This document shows, piece after piece, positions 26,481 to 33,511 of a stretch of DNA of 64,000 nucleotides. The notes under the pieces were generated by a model, which saw only the letters and a list, made by a program, of their open reading frames with translations, was not told where the DNA came from and did no database searches. A program made the position numbers and the translations under genes. How positions within the stretch are numbered: position 1 is the first letter of the stretch; every line of letters starts with the position of its first letter. Source of the stretch: Pseudomonas fluorescens (GTDB lineage Bacteria; Pseudomonadota; Gammaproteobacteria; Pseudomonadales; Pseudomonadaceae); NCBI RefSeq assembly GCF_019212185.1, contig NZ_CP078138.1, positions 2,648,501 through 2,712,500 of the forward strand, given 5' to 3'.

Positions 26481-27548
26481 ATGAAAACACTGGCCAAACT
26501 CCCCGTCACCATCGTTACCGGCTTCCTTGGCTCGGGCAAAACCACCTTGCTGCGGCACATGCTCGACAACGCCCAGGGCCGGCGCATCGCGGTGATCGTC
26601 AACGAATTTGGCGAGCTGGGCATCGACGGCGAAATCCTCAAGCAGTGCTCCATCGGCTGCACCGAAGAAGAAGCCAGCGGCCGGGTCTACGAGTTGGCCA
26701 ACGGTTGCCTGTGCTGCACCGTCCAGGAAGAATTCTTCCCGGTGATGCGCGAGCTGGTGGCGCGCCGTGGCGACCTCGACCACATCCTCATCGAAACCTC
26801 TGGCCTGGCCCTGCCCAAGCCGCTGGTCCAGGCTTTCCAGTGGCCGGAAATCCGCAGCGCCTGCACGGTTGACGCGGTTATTACCGTGGTCGACAGCCCG
26901 GCCGTCGCCGCCGGCACCTTCGCCGCCTTCCCGGACCAGGTTGACGCCCAGCGCAAGCTCGACCCGAACCTTGACCACGAGTCGCCGCTGCACGAACTGT
27001 TCGCTGACCAACTGGCCAGCGCCGACCTGGTGATCCTCAACAAGACCGACCTGATCAACCCCGAAGACCTGGCCCGAGTGCGCCAGGAAGTCGCCGAGGA
27101 ACTGCCGCCGGCGGTGAAAATCATCGAGGCCAGCAGCGGTCGCGTGCCGCTGGACGTGCTGATCGGCCTGGGTGCCGGCTCCGAAGAACACATCGACAGC
27201 CGCCACAGCCACCACGATCACCACCATGACGGCGACGATCATGAAGACCACGATCACGACGCCTTCGATTCGATCTCCATCGAACTGCCGCAAGCCGATG
27301 AAAGCCTGCTGCTCGATGCCCTGACCCAACTGGTGGTGCAGCACGGCATCCTGCGGGTCAAGGGTTTCGCGGCGATCCCGAACAAACCGATGCGCCTGCT
27401 GATCCAGGGCGTGGGCACTCGTTTCGACAAGCACTTCGACCGTCAGTGGGGCGCTGAAGAAGCGCGCATCACGCGCCTGGTGCTGATCGGCCAGGAACTG
27501 GACGCGGCCTTGCTCGAAGCGCAACTGCGCGCCGCCCTCAGCGTCTGA
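26481..27548 (+). CDS. cobW: CobW, GTP-dependent metallochaperone
   Basis: 355 residues of the COG0523 GTPase family. GFLGSGKTT (residues 14-22) is the P-loop, GCLCC the metal-binding CxCC motif, and NKTD the guanine-recognition motif. A His/Asp-rich stretch (about residues 232-255) sits before the CobW C-terminal domain. It is thought to load Co(II) for the CobN chelatase. It is followed after 3 bases by cobN. Confidence 0.95.
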   Translation: MKTLAKLPVTIVTGFLGSGKTTLLRHMLDNAQGRRIAVIVNEFGELGIDGEILKQCSIGCTEEEASGRVYELANGCLCCTVQEEFFPVMRELVARRGDLDHILIETSGLALPKPLVQAFQWPEIRSACTVDAVITVVDSPAVAAGTFAAFPDQVDAQRKLDPNLDHESPLHELFADQLASADLVILNKTDLINPEDLARVRQEVAEELPPAVKIIEASSGRVPLDVLIGLGAGSEEHIDSRHSHHDHHHDGDDHEDHDHDAFDSISIELPQADESLLLDALTQLVVQHGILRVKGFAAIPNKPMRLLIQGVGTRFDKHFDRQWGAEEARITRLVLIGQELDAALLEAQLRAALSV

Positions 27549-27551
27549 TCC

Positions 27552-30500
27552 ATGCACCTGCTCAGGACCCAGCCCGGCGGATTCGTCTCCGAGGACAACA
27601 TTGCCGATCTCGGGCAAACCCCCGCCGAGCTGGTGATCCTGTGCAGCGGTGACTCCAGCCTGGCGCTGCTGGCCGAGGCGGCGCAGCAACTGCCCGAGGA
27701 CTACCCGAGCCTGCGCCTGGCCAACCCGATGCAGGTGCAGAATCACGCCTCGGTCGACCTGTATGTCGATCAGGTGCTGCGCCACGCCAAGGTGATCCTG
27801 ATCTCGCTGCATGGCGGGATCGCCTATTGGCGCTACGGCGTCGAGCGCCTGATGGAACTGGCGCAGCGCGGTGTGCAACTGATTCTGGTGCCGGGCGACG
27901 ACCGTCCCGACCCGGAGCTCAGCGACTTGAGCACCGTGCCGGCGGAAGACCGCGAGCGGCTCTGGCACTTCCTGCGTCAGGGCGGCAAGCACAATGCTCT
28001 GGAGCTGTATCGCTGCCTGGCCAGTCGCTGGCTTGACCGCGACTATGCCTGGGGCGAGCCGCAAGTGCTGCCACGCACGGCGATCTATCATCCGCATCAC
28101 GCCCAGCCGAACCTGACCGATTGGCAAGCCGACTGGCGGCCCGGTCAGCCAGTGGCGGCGCTGCTGTTCTACCGCTCGCACTTGCAGGCGGCCAACACCG
28201 CGTTCGTCGATGTGTTCTGCCAGCGCTTGCAGGTGGCCGGACTCAATCCCTTGCCAATCGCCGTCGCCAGCCTCAAGGAGCCCGGCTGCCTGACGGTCGT
28301 CGAAGACTGGCTGGACGAGGTGCAGGCCGCGCTGATTCTCAACACCACCGGCTTTGCCCAGTCCAGCCCCGAGGCGCCGCACCTGCGGCCGTTCCGCCGC
28401 GATATCCCGGTGATCCAGGCGATCTGTGCCCAAGACAACGAGCCGGGCTGGAGTGCCAGCGAACAGGGGCTCGGCCCGCGTGACCTGGCGATGCACATTG
28501 CCTTGCCGGAACTGGATGGGCGGATCATCAGTCGGCCCATCAGCTTCAAGGACCTGGCCTGGCGCAGCGAGCGCAGCCAGTGCGATGTGGTCTGTTACCG
28601 GGCGCACCCCGAACGCATGGATTTCGTCGCCGAACTGGCCCGGCGCTGGGCCGAGTTGGCGCGCGTGCCGAACGGCGAGAAACGGGTGGCGCTGATTCTT
28701 GCCAACTATCCGACTCGCGATGGACGCATTGGCAACGGTGTCGGCCTGGACACCCCGGCAGCGGCCTTGAATATTCTGCGAGCGCTGCAGGAGCAAGGCT
28801 ATCCGCTGCCGGTCGAACTGCCCGTCAGCGGCACCGCGTTGATCCAGCAACTGCTCGGCGGGGTCAGTAACGATCTCGACAGCATCGACCTGCGCCCCTG
28901 CCAGCAAAGCCTGGCGCTGGAGGATTACCGGGCGATGTTCGAGGCCTTGCCGGAAGCTAACCGCAGCGCGGTGCTGCAACGCTGGGGCGAGCCGAGCGCG
29001 GACCCGATGTACCGCGACGGGCGGCTGATGATCGCCGGCCTGCGCTTCGGCCTGACCTTTGTCGGCATCCAGCCGGCGCGCGGTTATCAGGTCGATCCGA
29101 GCGCGGTCTACCACGACCCGGACCTGGTGCCGCCCCACGCCTACCTGGCGTTCTACTTCTGGCTGCGCAAGGTCTACGGCGCCCATGCGCTGATCCATGT
29201 CGGCAAACACGGGAACCTAGAATGGCTGCCGGGCAAGGGTGTTGGCCTGTCCGAGCAGTGCTGGCCGGATGCGCTGCTCGGGCCGCTGCCGAACATCTAC
29301 CCGTTTATCGTCAACGACCCGGGCGAGGGCGCCCAGGCCAAACGCCGCACCCAAGCGGTGATCATCGACCACCTGATGCCACCCCTGACCCGCGCCGAAA
29401 CCTACGGCCCGCTGCGCAATCTGGAGTTGCTGGCCGACGAATATTACGAAGCGCAACTGCTCGACCCACGGCGGGCTCGCGAACTGCAGCGCGACATTCT
29501 GGCGCTGGTGCGTGAGACCCACATTGACCGTGAGCTGCAACTCGATAGCGACGCCGACGCGGCGATCTGGCTGCCGCGCCTGGACACCTACCTGTGCGAC
29601 CTCAAGGAATCGCAGATTCGCGATGGGCTGCATGTATTCGGCGAGTCGCCGAGTGGGCGTTTGCGCATCGACACCTTGCTCGCGTTGTTGCGCATTCCCC
29701 GGGGGGATGGTCGGGGGGCGCAATCGAGCTTGTTGCGGGCGTTGAGCAAAGCCTTTGCGCTGGGGTTTGATCCGCTGGATTGTGCCCTGGCCGAACCCTG
29801 GAGCGGACCGCGCCCGGAGGTGTTGGCCGCGATTACCGACGAGCCCTGGCGCACTGCGGGGGATAGCCGTGAGCGGTTGGAGTTGTTTGCCAGCCAACTC
29901 ATCTCCCAGACATTGAGCCCTGATACCTGTAGGAGCGAGCCTGCTCGCGATGGTGTATCAGACACATCGCAGTCGCCTGACACTCCATCGCGAGCAGGCT
30001 CGCTCCTGCAATGGTCTGCATCGGTAGAAGTCGAAGCCATCCTCGACCACCTGCGCGAAGTCGTCGCCCCGCGCCTGGACGCCTGCGGCCCGGCGGAAAT
30101 GCACGGTTTGCTCAGCGCCCTCGCCGGACGTTTCGTCCCCGCCGGCCCCAGTGGTGCGCCAAGTCGTGGGCGCCTCGATGTGTTGCCCACCGGGCGTAAT
30201 TTCTACTCGGTGGACGTGCGCAACCTACCGACCACCACCGCCTGGCGCATCGGTTTTCAATCGGCCAACCTGATTCTCGAACGGCACCTGCAGGACCACG
30301 GCGATCACCTGCGCCAGCTCGGCCTGTCAGTGTGGGGCACGGCGACCATGCGCACCGGCGGCGACGACATTGCCCAGGCCATGGCGCTGATGGGCGTGCG
30401 TCCGGTGTGGGCCACGGGCAGCCAGCGGGTCGATGACTTCGAAATCCTGCCGCTGAGCCTGCTCGACCGGCCACGGGTCGACGTGACCTTGCGCGTGTCC

Positions 30501-31385
30501 GGATTCTTCCGCGATGCCTTCGCCAACCTGATCCGCCTGTTCGACGCCGCCGTGCAAGCGGTGGCCGCGCTGGACGAGCCGGATGACCTCAACCCGCTGG
30601 CGGCCAAGGTGCGTCAGGAGCGCGAGACGCTGCTGCAGTCCGGACTCGATGCCGATGCGGCGGCGCGCCAGGCCGGCTGGCGGATTTTCGGTGCCAAGCC
30701 CGGTGCCTACGGTGCTGGCGTGCAGGGCGCGATCGACGGGCGCCTGTGGCAAAGCCGCGACGACCTGGCCGAGGTCTACCTGAACTGGGGCGGCTACGCC
30801 TATGGCGGCGCCGACGAAGGTACGGCGGCGCGCACACAGTTTGCTCAGCGCCTGAGCCAGGTGCAGGCGGTGGTGCAGAACCAGGACAACCGCGAGCACG
30901 ACCTGCTCGATTCCAACGACTACTACCAATTCCAGGGTGGCATGCTCGCCGCCGTGGAAAGCCTCAGCGGTGCAGCGGCGGCCAGTTATCACGGCGATCA
31001 CAGCCAGCCGGACCTACCGAAGATCCGCACCCTCAAGGAAGAACTGAACCGGGTGATTCGCTCGCGGGCTGCCAATCCGAAGTGGATTGAGGGGGTTAAG
31101 CGCCACGGCTATAAAGGTGCGTTCGAGCTGGCGGCGACCGTCGACAACCTGTTCGCCTTCGATGCCACCACGCAGCTGATCGACGATCACCAGTACGCCT
31201 TGCTGGCGGATGCCTACCTGCTCGATCCATCGACCCGAGCGTTCGTCCAGCAGCATAATCCCCATGCCCTGCGCGACATGACCGAGCGCCTGCTGGAAGC
31301 CCAGCAGCGCGGCTTGTGGCAGGAGCCAGGGGCCTACCGCGAAGCGCTGGAACACCTGCTGCTGGATATCGAGGAAGAGAGTTGA
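27552..31385 (+). CDS. cobN: Cobaltochelatase large subunit CobN
   Basis: 1277 residues of the CobN/BchH family. It contains the conserved HVGKHGNLEWLPGKGVGLS segment and the late NWGGYAYGG block. It inserts Co(II) into hydrogenobyrinic acid diamide, with ATPase partners encoded next. About 28 residues near 793-820 (CRSEPARDG...SRAGSLLQ) are encoded by a REPIN inserted in frame and are not part of the family core. Apart from that, length and order are normal. Confidence 0.95.
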   Translation: MHLLRTQPGGFVSEDNIADLGQTPAELVILCSGDSSLALLAEAAQQLPEDYPSLRLANPMQVQNHASVDLYVDQVLRHAKVILISLHGGIAYWRYGVERLMELAQRGVQLILVPGDDRPDPELSDLSTVPAEDRERLWHFLRQGGKHNALELYRCLASRWLDRDYAWGEPQVLPRTAIYHPHHAQPNLTDWQADWRPGQPVAALLFYRSHLQAANTAFVDVFCQRLQVAGLNPLPIAVASLKEPGCLTVVEDWLDEVQAALILNTTGFAQSSPEAPHLRPFRRDIPVIQAICAQDNEPGWSASEQGLGPRDLAMHIALPELDGRIISRPISFKDLAWRSERSQCDVVCYRAHPERMDFVAELARRWAELARVPNGEKRVALILANYPTRDGRIGNGVGLDTPAAALNILRALQEQGYPLPVELPVSGTALIQQLLGGVSNDLDSIDLRPCQQSLALEDYRAMFEALPEANRSAVLQRWGEPSADPMYRDGRLMIAGLRFGLTFVGIQPARGYQVDPSAVYHDPDLVPPHAYLAFYFWLRKVYGAHALIHVGKHGNLEWLPGKGVGLSEQCWPDALLGPLPNIYPFIVNDPGEGAQAKRRTQAVIIDHLMPPLTRAETYGPLRNLELLADEYYEAQLLDPRRARELQRDILALVRETHIDRELQLDSDADAAIWLPRLDTYLCDLKESQIRDGLHVFGESPSGRLRIDTLLALLRIPRGDGRGAQSSLLRALSKAFALGFDPLDCALAEPWSGPRPEVLAAITDEPWRTAGDSRERLELFASQLISQTLSPDTCRSEPARDGVSDTSQSPDTPSRAGSLLQWSASVEVEAILDHLREVVAPRLDACGPAEMHGLLSALAGRFVPAGPSGAPSRGRLDVLPTGRNFYSVDVRNLPTTTAWRIGFQSANLILERHLQDHGDHLRQLGLSVWGTATMRTGGDDIAQAMALMGVRPVWATGSQRVDDFEILPLSLLDRPRVDVTLRVSGFFRDAFANLIRLFDAAVQAVAALDEPDDLNPLAAKVRQERETLLQSGLDADAAARQAGWRIFGAKPGAYGAGVQGAIDGRLWQSRDDLAEVYLNWGGYAYGGADEGTAARTQFAQRLSQVQAVVQNQDNREHDLLDSNDYYQFQGGMLAAVESLSGAAAASYHGDHSQPDLPKIRTLKEELNRVIRSRAANPKWIEGVKRHGYKGAFELAATVDNLFAFDATTQLIDDHQYALLADAYLLDPSTRAFVQQHNPHALRDMTERLLEAQQRGLWQEPGAYREALEHLLLDIEEES
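29928..30010. repeat. REPIN inserted in frame inside cobN
   Basis: TGTAGGAGCGAGCCTGCTCG (and on to GATGG, 29928-29953) and its inverted copy at 29985-30010 match at 25 of 26 positions. The element is read through in the cobN frame with no stop. Confidence 0.9.
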
Positions 31386-31405
31386 ACCCAAGTACGAGAG
31401 CCGAG

Positions 31406-32413
31406 ATGACTGACGTCCCGCATTTTCCGCTGTCCGCCGTGGTCGGCGCCGATGCCTTGAAACTGGCGCTGTGCCTGAGCGCAATCGACCCGAAAATCGG
31501 CGGTGTGCTGATCGAGGGACCGCGGGGCATGGCCAAGTCGACCCTGGCCCGGGGCCTGGCCGATCTGCTGGCCAGCGGGCAGTTCGTCACCTTGCCGTTG
31601 GGCGCTACCGAAGAGCGGCTGGTCGGCACCCTCGACCTCGACGCGGCGCTGGGCGAGGGTCGTGCGCAGTTTTCCCCGGGCGTCTTGGCCAAGGCTGACG
31701 GTGGCGTGCTCTACGTCGATGAAGTCAATCTGCTGCCCGATCACCTGGTGGACCTGCTGCTCGATGTCGCCGCCAGCGGTACCAACCTGGTGGAGCGCGA
31801 CGGCATTTCCCATCGGCATCCAGCGCGCTTCGTGCTAATCGGCACCATGAACCCGGAGGAGGGCGAGTTGCGTCCGCAACTGCTCGACCGCTTCGGCCTC
31901 AACGTCGCCCTCGACGGTCACACTGAACCGCTGGAGCGTGGGCAGATTATCCGTCGCCGCCTGGACTTCGACAGCGATCCGCAAGGCTTCTGCGAACAAT
32001 GGCAAGAAGCGCAACAGCAACTGCGCGAGCGCTGCCAGCGTGCCCGTGAGGGGCTGGCGGCGATACCCCTGGACGACACGGCCCTGGCGCAGATTACCGA
32101 ACGCTGTTTTGCCGCCGGAGTCGATGGCCTGCGCGCCGACCTGGTCTGGCTGCGTGCCGCGCGCGCCCATGCCGCCTGGCGCCGTGCTGCAGCCATCAGC
32201 GAAGAAGATATCGACGCGGTGGCCGAGTTTGCCCTGCGTCATCGTCGACGCAACCCATCTGCGCAAAGCCACAGCCAGCCACCGGCCACCCAAGCCTCGC
32301 CCAACCAATCATCACGGCCCGACGAAGGCCAGGGCCAGTGGGGCGAGTTGCCGGCCCAGGCACTGCCCACTGGCGCTCGCCGTGAGGTGCCGAGCTGGCC
32401 AAAAAAGCCCTAG
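31406..32413 (+). CDS. Cobaltochelatase small subunit, ChlI/BchI-like AAA+ ATPase
   Basis: 335 residues by normal decoding. Walker A reads EGPRGMAKSTLARG, Walker B LYVDEVNLL, and the sensor region GTMNPEEGELRPQLLDRFGL, as in the ATPase subunits of magnesium and cobalt chelatases. It ends in a Gln/Pro/Ser-rich linker and a TAG just after the slippery heptamer A AAA AAG. This is the short product; a -1 shift gives the longer one. The ATG at 31406 lies 20 bases after cobN. Confidence 0.9.
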   Translation: MTDVPHFPLSAVVGADALKLALCLSAIDPKIGGVLIEGPRGMAKSTLARGLADLLASGQFVTLPLGATEERLVGTLDLDAALGEGRAQFSPGVLAKADGGVLYVDEVNLLPDHLVDLLLDVAASGTNLVERDGISHRHPARFVLIGTMNPEEGELRPQLLDRFGLNVALDGHTEPLERGQIIRRRLDFDSDPQGFCEQWQEAQQQLRERCQRAREGLAAIPLDDTALAQITERCFAAGVDGLRADLVWLRAARAHAAWRRAAAISEEDIDAVAEFALRHRRRNPSAQSHSQPPATQASPNQSSRPDEGQGQWGELPAQALPTGARREVPSWPKKP

Positions 32414-32448
32414 GCATTCGCCCTCGTGCAACGGCGGGGGCGAATGCC
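32384..32448 (+). other. Programmed -1 frameshift cassette
   Basis: Three elements lie in the expected order. An SD-like GAGGTG is at 32384-32389. The slippery heptamer A AAA AAG is in the zero frame at 32401-32407, 11 bases later. A hairpin follows, with exact 11-bp arms GGCATTCGCCC (32413-32423) and GGGCGAATGCC (32438-32448). The zero-frame stop TAG (32411) lies between the slip site and the hairpin. The -1 frame continues openly into the VWA domain. Confidence 0.85.
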
Positions 32449-33066
32449 AGGCCCCGCGCCGGGCACTTGAAACATGGCCGCCAGGGGCAACGTCAGGCCG
32501 CCAGCAGCGGCACGGTGAACTGGCCAGGGACCTTGCTCAATGGCCGTCCCCGGCAACGCGACGACCTGTTGTTTCACCTGCGTACACGCAGTCCTCATGA
32601 GTTGTGGCTGGTGATTGTCGACGCCTCGGCCTCGACCCGTCGCCATCACGCTTTGAGCGATGCCAAAGGCTTGTTGGCGCAGTTGTTCGACGACGCCTAC
32701 CGCCAGCGCGCGCGGCTGGCCTTGCTCACTGCCAGCGGCAGCGCGCCGCGTTGGCAAGTGCAAGGCCTGAAAGCCTCGGCCAGCTTGCGTGACTGGCTCG
32801 ATGCGCTGGGGGCGGCGGGCGGGACGCCGTTATCGGCGGCATTGGCTGAGGCCGAGACCTGGCTGGCGCGCCGGCAAAAGCGTTATCCGGCCGAACAGCA
32901 GCGCATCCTGCTCTTGACCGATGGCCGGCTGAAATCGATGCCCGAGGTGCCGGCCTTCGCCTGCCCGAGCCTGCTGGTGGACATCGAGCGCGGGCCGATC
33001 CGCCTCGGTCGGGCGCAAACTCTGGCTCGCGCGTTGAACGCCGAATATCGGCATATCGACGACTGA
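32407..33066 (+). CDS. VWA (ChlD/CobT-like) part of the chelatase medium subunit, -1 frame
   Basis: Reading -1 from the slip site gives 219 more residues, for a fusion of about 553 residues. A basic linker (ALGIRPRATAGANARPRAG) leads to a von Willebrand A domain with the complete MIDAS: DASAS, the Thr in GGTPL and TDGR. BchD/ChlD medium subunits have exactly this AAA+ - linker - VWA order. An independent start is poor: the first candidate is TTG at 32467 with no ribosome site. I therefore read it as the frameshift extension, not a separate gene. Confidence 0.82.
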   Translation, partial: ALGIRPRATAGANARPRAGHLKHGRQGQRQAASSGTVNWPGTLLNGRPRQRDDLLFHLRTRSPHELWLVIVDASASTRRHHALSDAKGLLAQLFDDAYRQRARLALLTASGSAPRWQVQGLKASASLRDWLDALGAAGGTPLSAALAEAETWLARRQKRYPAEQQRILLLTDGRLKSMPEVPAFACPSLLVDIERGPIRLGRAQTLARALNAEYRHIDD

Positions 33067-33080
33067 TTCGGCCTCAACGG

Positions 33081-33332
33081 CTAGCTGCCCTGATCGATGC
33101 AACCATCGCCATAAGCCTGATAGCGCAGGGTGTGCACCACGCCCTGGGAGTCAGCGTACGTCAGTTCCCGCGTGCCGATCCCGCAGTACCCGTAGTCGGA
33201 GGTCGAGATCACCCGGGCGATATCCAGGTGCATCCCCCAGTGATAGTCCTCTGCAGCAGGTGCCGGGGCGGTGGCGGCTGATACCAGGGGGCTCAGGCTG
33301 AGCAGGGCCAGGCCAAGCAAGGCGGTTTTCAT
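33081..33332 (-). CDS. DUF2790 small secreted protein
   Basis: 83 residues: signal peptide (KTALLGLALLSLSPLVSA) followed by the Pseudomonas-type DUF2790 core (YHWGMHLDIARVISTSD with two Cys further on). Such proteins are small, periplasmic and of unknown role, several being copper- or stress-induced. ATG 33332 follows AGGAA; the upstream ATG at 33368 would spoil the signal peptide. Confidence 0.85.
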   Translation of the reverse strand: MKTALLGLALLSLSPLVSAATAPAPAAEDYHWGMHLDIARVISTSDYGYCGIGTRELTYADSQGVVHTLRYQAYGDGCIDQGS

Positions 33333-33452
33333 GATGGGGTTCCTGTCTAGGCGTTTGAAGGATTTCAACGCCAGTACGACGTACCCCGAGGAGGTTTATT
33401 CCCGGATTGAGCAAGCAAATGCATCGGGATTTATGGCAGACTTTCTCGATTA

Positions 33453-33490
33453 ATTCCGTTAATGCGAACATGATTCCGCTATAGCGGAAT
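33453..33490 (+). promoter_or_regulatory. Palindromic operator, likely IclR-type site
   Basis: ATTCCGCTATAGCGGAAT at 33473-33490 is an exact 18-bp palindrome. A related ATTCCGTTAATGCGAAC starts 20 bp earlier at 33453. Both lie just before ridA, the first gene of a unit that encodes an IclR regulator, and TTCCG/CGGAA dyads are typical IclR-family targets. Confidence 0.6.
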
Positions 33491-33511
33491 CTATAGCCAG
33501 GAGAAAGCCCC

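What the first reader, a model, noticed from the sequence alone, without database searches (positions are those of the whole stretch)
31406..33066. One gene, two cobaltochelatase subunits by programmed -1 frameshifting
The ChlI-like ATPase frame contains A AAA AAG in the right phase, with GAGGTG 11 bases upstream and an exact 11-bp hairpin starting 5 bases downstream; the stop of the short product lies between. The -1 frame continues a basic linker and a VWA domain with full MIDAS, and the VWA part has no good start of its own. Family knowledge: BchD/ChlD have AAA+-linker-VWA architecture, and frameshifting in chlD genes near cobN has been proposed in earlier comparative work. Inference: the normal and shifted products are the small and medium partners of CobN encoded just upstream.
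Basis: partly seen in the sequence, partly recalled or inferred. Interest (0 to 1): 0.85.

Follow-up and report, generated by a model that had tools for sequence, protein, structure and literature searches.

The report
Known frameshifted cobalt-chelatase gene (chlD)
A bacterial vitamin-B12 gene almost certainly makes two enzyme parts from one message by a programmed slip of the ribosome, a device already published for this gene family, Pseudomonas included, so this is a well-conserved but ordinary example.

Summary
ORF1 (31406-32413, 335 aa, AAA+) ends at A_AAA_AAG (32401-32407) in the right phase; the -1 frame adds 219 residues with a VWA domain (553 aa in all); a hairpin spans 32413-32448. 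NNA AAA AAG is kept in 94 of 94 loci at >=64% identity, the hairpin covaries, and the -1 ORF is under purifying selection (median dN/dS 0.18). A model of the site matches 187 of 199 same-genus genomes. ORF1 is in 189 of 199; the other 10 have no or only a weak match to the CobN model TIGR02257. The own genome has no CobS or CobT over cut-off. The Shine-Dalgarno-like GAGGTG is not conserved: 6 of 89 distinct sites, with weaker pairing than synonymous resampling gives. The mechanism is in print, Pseudomonas named: PMC3711429, PMC5009743 (P. protegens stem-loop printed), PMC9227772. So: already known. No protein product was seen here; the slip and the subunit roles are inferred.

The parts
31406..32413 (+). 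[quoted passage not shown]
   Evidence: translation; TIGR02442 409.7 bits, TIGR02030 341 bits, both under their cut-offs; AAA_lid_2, AAA_5; ChlI/BchI structures, E 3.8e-81 to 8.4e-84
32401..32407 (+). slippery heptamer A_AAA_AAG, in phase for a -1 shift
   Evidence: kept in 94 of 94 loci at >=64% identity
32411..32413 (+). 0-frame stop codon (TAG) that ends the short product
   Evidence: in the 94 loci the stop is the first or second codon after the heptamer: TAG 74, TGA 17, TAA 3
32413..32448 (+). downstream hairpin, probably stimulatory
   Evidence: -34.2 kcal/mol, z -4.5; 91.2% of cells paired, 22 cells changed on both sides; slid controls 34.8-50.5% paired
32407..33066 (+). -1 frame continuation: basic linker and VWA domain with MIDAS-like motifs, C-terminal 219 residues of the predicted 553-aa medium subunit
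   Evidence: VWA_2; BchD chain 2x31_A, E 3.7e-07; median dN/dS 0.18; first 62 residues hold 12 K/R and 2 D/E; DxSxS in 91 of 93 copies
32384..32389 (+). GAGGTG, Shine-Dalgarno-like; present but probably not part of the signal
   Evidence: (not conserved, 6 of 89 distinct sites)
27552..31385 (+). cobN, large subunit of the aerobic cobaltochelatase, directly upstream
   Evidence: TIGR02257 1740.8 bits, cut-off 822.05
26481..27548 (+). cobW, upstream in the same cobalamin gene group
   Evidence: TIGR02475 533.7 bits, cut-off 332.1

Best explanation
This is a frameshifted chlD (fs-chlD) gene. Ribosomes that stay in frame end at TAG 32411 and make a 335-residue AAA+ protein that serves as the small subunit. 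A fraction slip back one base on A_AAA_AAG, helped by the hairpin just downstream, and continue to 33063, making a 553-residue AAA-linker-VWA protein that serves as the medium subunit. Both work with CobN, encoded directly upstream, to insert cobalt in aerobic B12 synthesis. Shown here: reading frames, heptamer, hairpin, their conservation and covariation, purifying selection on the -1 frame, and co-occurrence with CobN. Inferred: the slip itself, its efficiency, and the subunit roles.
For: Heptamer in 94 of 94 loci with the wobble A kept across three different codons. Hairpin 91.2% paired against 34.8-50.5% when slid, with C-G in 24, U-A in 18 and U-G in 10 of 55 sequences at one pair. Site model matches 187 of 199 genus genomes. 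Median dN/dS 0.18 for the -1 ORF; Walker and MIDAS-like motifs kept in 91 to 93 of 93. ORF1 in 189 of 199 genomes, each of which also has a TIGR02257 (CobN) match; of the 10 without ORF1, 6 have none and 4 a weak one. No CobS or CobT over cut-off in the own genome. Searching the own genome with the ChlI-ChlD model gives strong matches only at this locus; all others are <=34.9 bits. Reporter cassettes of three relatives gave 10, 40 and 63% frameshifting in E. coli (passage of PMC3711429).
Against: No product was observed here. The published 10, 40 and 63% are for runs of 7, 9 and 11 A; in the passages that I saw there is no test of A_AAA_AAG from a Pseudomonas. Against column shuffles the pairing advantage of the hairpin is small in size (91.2% against a mean of 89.3%, though 0 of 500 reach it), and the number of further pair types is not exceptional (10 against 8.6, 65 of 500 reach it). 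Nine relatives read AAA and VWA in one frame without a second ORF1-like gene in their records, so a separate small subunit is not demonstrably needed in every relative; 8 of those 9 have no CobN match in the held flank. The loci are related and partly reached twice (88 distinct strings of 94), so counts are not independent events.
Confidence: 0.9

Rival explanations
1. The VWA part is a separate protein, started on its own or by re-initiation after the ORF1 stop.
For: A TTG in the right frame begins 53 nt beyond the stop, at 32467. PMC3711429 says that in some of its experiments frameshifting was seen along with initiation at the downstream gene (passage).
Against: The first start codon varies in position and type over 93 copies (ATG 3, GTG 37, TTG 49, none in the first 55 codons 4), and 12 of 93 have any start with an SD-like tetramer there. 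It would not explain the invariant heptamer.
Confidence: 0.05
2. The frame break is a sequencing error or a decaying gene.
For: Nothing in the window. One relative (G164, L161) does have a frame break upstream of a retained heptamer.
Against: The same break sits at the same place in 94 of 94 loci; the -1 ORF is under purifying selection.
Confidence: 0.01
3. The A-run causes transcriptional slippage rather than ribosomal frameshifting.
For: The site holds six A in a row, and the fusion protein would be much alike.
Against: The run is short, and the conserved, covarying hairpin 5 nt downstream fits ribosomal frameshifting. The papers seen treat the family as ribosomal.
Confidence: 0.04

Closest known systems
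Frameshifted chlD genes (fs-chlD) of Antonov and colleagues: PMC3711429 (2013, passages seen), PMC9227772 (2022, two of four parts, passages and the table seen), Mol Biol Evol 2020 msaa081 (not held; reference entry seen, contents recalled)
   Same: AAA/VWA gene split by a -1 shift, slippery A-run, downstream structure, CobN without cobS/cobT; Pseudomonas is one of six genera in the 2013 cluster and P. aeruginosa is listed at stage 8 in 2022
   Different: Nothing of kind; this is another Pseudomonas member. Added here: genus-wide counts, a covariation test and evidence against an SD element
Pseudomonas protegens magnesium-chelatase frameshift site printed in PMC5009743 (2016 review, passages seen)
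   Same: A_AAA_AAR shift site and nearly the same stem-loop, from CTAGGCATCCGCC to GGGGGCGGATGCC
   Different: A few base changes in stem and loop. The review calls the sequence of the structure not strongly conserved; here its pairing is conserved and covaries
E. coli dnaX -1 frameshift signal (recalled, from no call)
   Same: A_AAA_AAG heptamer and a hairpin a few bases downstream
   Different: The upstream SD stimulator of dnaX is not conserved here; here the shift makes the longer product
CobNST cobaltochelatase of the cobS/cobT type
   Same: Same presumed enzymatic role and a CobN partner
   Different: No CobS or CobT over cut-off in this genome

Membership tests
fs-chlD (programmed -1 frameshift chlD) | AAA+ ORF followed by a VWA ORF in the -1 frame | tested here: met
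fs-chlD (programmed -1 frameshift chlD) | Conserved in-phase slippery A-rich heptamer at the junction | tested here: met
   94 of 94 loci at >=64% identity
fs-chlD (programmed -1 frameshift chlD) | Downstream RNA structure | tested here: met
fs-chlD (programmed -1 frameshift chlD) | CobN present, separate small-subunit gene absent | tested here: met
   own genome: CobN; no other strong ChlI-ChlD match; no CobS or CobT over cut-off
fs-chlD (programmed -1 frameshift chlD) | Frameshifting measured in cells | not testable with these tools
   Measured for three members of the cluster in print, not for this gene
dnaX-type signal with SD stimulator | Conserved upstream Shine-Dalgarno-like element (feature recalled) | tested here: not met
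   GAGGTG in 6 of 89 distinct sites; anti-SD energy -3.9 against -5.0 kcal/mol expected
CobNST with cobS/cobT | CobS and CobT genes over family cut-offs | tested here: not met
   own genome: CobS best 30.7 bits, cut-off 558.55; CobT no match at E<=0.001
TIGR02442 (putative cobaltochelatase, fused) | Score over the curated cut-off of 779.45 bits | tested here: inconclusive
   The two ORFs were scored apart: 409.7 and 75.3 bits; the joined protein was not scored. Six single-frame relatives score 451.5 to 492.6 bits, also under the cut-off

The most novel reading that the evidence does not exclude
Because both products carry the identical AAA+ domain with intact Walker motifs (unlike Mg-chelatase, where, as recalled, the AAA domain of subunit D has diverged from that of subunit I), they may co-assemble in one mixed ring. 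The frameshift rate would then set how many VWA arms each ring bears, rather than supplying two separate rings.
Probability: 0.3. Interest if true: 0.45.

Novelty: already known. Interest (0 to 1): 0.22.

Why it matters
It is a clean, nearly genus-wide example of recoding that stands in for a second gene: one gene supplies two chelatase subunits, and annotation splits it into two adjacent genes (PMC3711429 passage). The genus gives a ready set of natural variants for testing which parts of the signal matter, and it points to heptamer plus hairpin without an upstream SD.

Tried and rejected
SD stimulator as part of the signal: rejected on conservation and resampling.

Second site-model matches in many genomes: in the five sources with a second match (window, L016, L021, L059, L126) it is the same hairpin read on the opposite strand; the second matches of the other genomes were not looked at.

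Four genus genomes with a CobN-like match but no ORF1 (G060, G082, G180, G185) looked like exceptions; they pass the cut-off of the broad family PF02514. The one examined (L158, G185) is a 1438-aa protein with a hydrophobic N-terminus, 494.8 bits to TIGR02257 against a cut-off of 822.05, near a TonB-dependent receptor, so I take it as a paralogue. For the other three I have only scores.

Rfam: no family reaches its gathering score in 31000-33500. Paper searches gave nothing closer than the papers cited, which came. A slippery site shared by the single-frame relatives: heptamers of the X_XXY_YYZ kinds tried occur in 5 of the 9 scanned, at scattered places.

Full report
WHAT IS THERE. ORF1 runs from ATG 31406 to TAG 32411-32413 (335 aa) and is ChlI-like AAA+. 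Its last codons read CCA AAA AAG CCC TAG, so A_AAA_AAG (32401-32407) lies in the phase needed for a -1 slip. In the -1 frame the sequence stays open to 33066, adding 219 residues: a basic linker (12 K/R and 2 D/E in the first 62 residues) and a VWA domain, 553 aa in all. A hairpin of 11 Watson-Crick pairs plus two more pairs starts 5 nt after the heptamer (32413-32448; -34.2 kcal/mol, z -4.5). CobN (27552-31385) and CobW lie directly upstream.

IS IT MORE THAN CHANCE. I took loci L016-L125 (80, 30), 110 in all. Three end before the ORF1 stop (L063, L075, L078) and 107 could be read. Of these, 94 match ORF1 at >=64% identity. The 94 include the window's own copy and some genomes reached twice; they hold 88 distinct 85-nt strings. 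All 94 have NNA AAA AAG: CCA 88, GCA 5, ACA 1. The stop is the first or second codon after it: TAG 74, TGA 17, TAA 3.

HAIRPIN. On 55 distinct sites it is paired in 91.2% of cells against 34.8-50.5% when slid, with 22 cells changed on both sides. Against column shuffles the gain in paired cells is small (mean 89.3%, 0 of 500 reach 91.2), cells changed on both sides stand out (7.2 expected, 0 of 500), and further pair types do not (8.6 expected against 10, 65 of 500). The 55 were 55 of 72 distinct junctions; the 17 not used are all from L097-L125. Before that, six loci had been left out because their downstream sequence differs: L084, L087, L092 (<64% identity) and L074, L076, L079 (>=64%). Of the last three, L074 and L076 fold another strong hairpin (-30.9 and -31.7 kcal/mol) and L079 a weaker, irregular one (-20.3). 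Three of the 55 with a shorter loop (L053, L060, L062) count as broken because the alignment has no gaps.

THE -1 ORF. Over 93 copies (one of the 94 runs off its locus and was dropped) median dN/dS against the window's copy is 0.18; synonymous differences are large (mean pS 0.59), so the figure is rough. MIDAS-like DxSxS is found in 91, GG[TS]P in 93 and [TS]DG[RN] in 92 of 93; in ORF1 Walker A in 92 and Walker B in 93 of 93 (motif consensuses recalled).

THE SD ELEMENT. GAGGTG is present in the window, 11 nt upstream. It is in 6 of 89 distinct sites. Mean anti-SD duplex energy is -3.9 kcal/mol against -5.0 when codons are resampled synonymously, and 2% of sites reach p<=0.1. I therefore do not count it as part of the signal.

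PARTNERS. Across 199 genomes of the genus (the own one included, drawn evenly from a larger group), ORF1 is in 189 at E<=1e-40, the site model in 187 at E<=0.01, and TIGR02257 (CobN) in 193, of which 188 over cut-off. The six genomes without any TIGR02257 match all lack ORF1; the four other genomes without ORF1 have weak matches (best E 1e-63 to 1e-67, under cut-off as inferred from these values, the tally and the 494.8 bits of the one examined), although they pass the cut-off of the broader PF02514. Of the 12 genomes without a site-model match, 10 lack ORF1; the others are G027, whose diverged site still has the heptamer and scores 22.7 bits in a smaller search (L145), and G076, which was not examined. 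The own genome has no CobT match and only a 30.7-bit CobS match, and no other strong ChlI-ChlD match. CobN lies directly upstream on the same strand (gap under 400 nt) in 62 of the 80 loci, and somewhere in the held flank in 71 of 80.

RESULTS THAT DO NOT FIT NEATLY. Of 13 more distant loci (<64% identity), three keep a heptamer (L084 AAAAAAG; L087 and L092 AAAAAAA) with CobN upstream. Nine others encode AAA and VWA in one open frame; the tenth, L090, holds a masked stretch where the VWA part would be, so its layout is open. None of these ten shows a second ORF1-like gene at E<=1e-20 in its record (completeness not told). Of the nine, eight show no CobN in the held flank; L093 has CobN directly upstream. 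L090 has CobN downstream. So a single full-length protein may suffice in some relatives, or it does something else there, or the small subunit arises otherwise; CobS was not tested there. In the genus itself one genome (G164) has an ORF1 frame broken upstream of a retained heptamer.

WHAT IS KNOWN. PMC3711429 (passages) reports a cluster of 23 magnesium-chelatase genes with a -1 frameshift in six genera including Pseudomonas; three cassettes gave 63, 40 and 10% frameshifting in E. coli, for runs of 11, 9 and 7 A. PMC5009743 (passages) names Pseudomonas, gives the conserved A_AAA_AAR site and prints the P. protegens stem-loop, nearly the one here. PMC9227772 (two of four parts, passages and table; [quoted passage not shown] aeruginosa. 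The 2020 Mol Biol Evol paper that it cites is not held; I know its contents only by recall. Hence already known.

VERDICT. The frameshift reading is very likely right (0.9 for the whole statement), the SD element is not supported, and the finding is a further member of a published kind. What I add is modest: genus-wide counts, a covariation test, the negative SD result, and the single-frame relatives without a second gene.

Noticed in passing
window 29928-30010: Inside cobN an in-frame palindromic insert (34-nt arms, 91% complementary) that looks like a REP doublet and is translated from residue 793; some relatives (L027, L031, L034, L035, L039, L077, and L063 of another kind) show different translated inserts at about the same place. 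The REP label is recalled.
   Followed up: partly
L126 46-4788 (G176): cobN and the AAA ORF are one uninterrupted frame of 1582 codons, with heptamer and hairpin kept, so a slip there would give a CobN-AAA-VWA triple fusion.
   Followed up: partly
L161 8694-10376 (G164): ORF1 frame is broken a little upstream of a retained heptamer, and about 5 kb with other genes lies between cobN and ORF1.
   Followed up: partly
L082, L083, L085, L086, L088, L089, L091, L093, L094 (L090 masked): Single-frame AAA-VWA relatives with no second ORF1-like gene in the record, 8 of 9 without cobN in the held flank; how they supply a small subunit, or what they do, is open.
   Followed up: partly
L152, L153, L154, L155 (G041, G060, G185, G042): Of 20 genus genomes searched for CobT, four, all lacking ORF1, hold a CobT-like protein well below the family cut-off (265-297 bits against 759.05); two of them (G041, G042) have no CobN match.
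   Followed up: no
L158 4067-8383 (minus strand): CobN-like 1438-aa protein with a hydrophobic N-terminus near a TonB-dependent receptor, probably an exported paralogue rather than the biosynthetic chelatase.
   Followed up: partly
window 32401-32448, minus strand: Read on the minus strand the hairpin is followed by TAGGGC and six T, somewhat like a terminator; no use for it was seen, and it was not tested.
   Followed up: no
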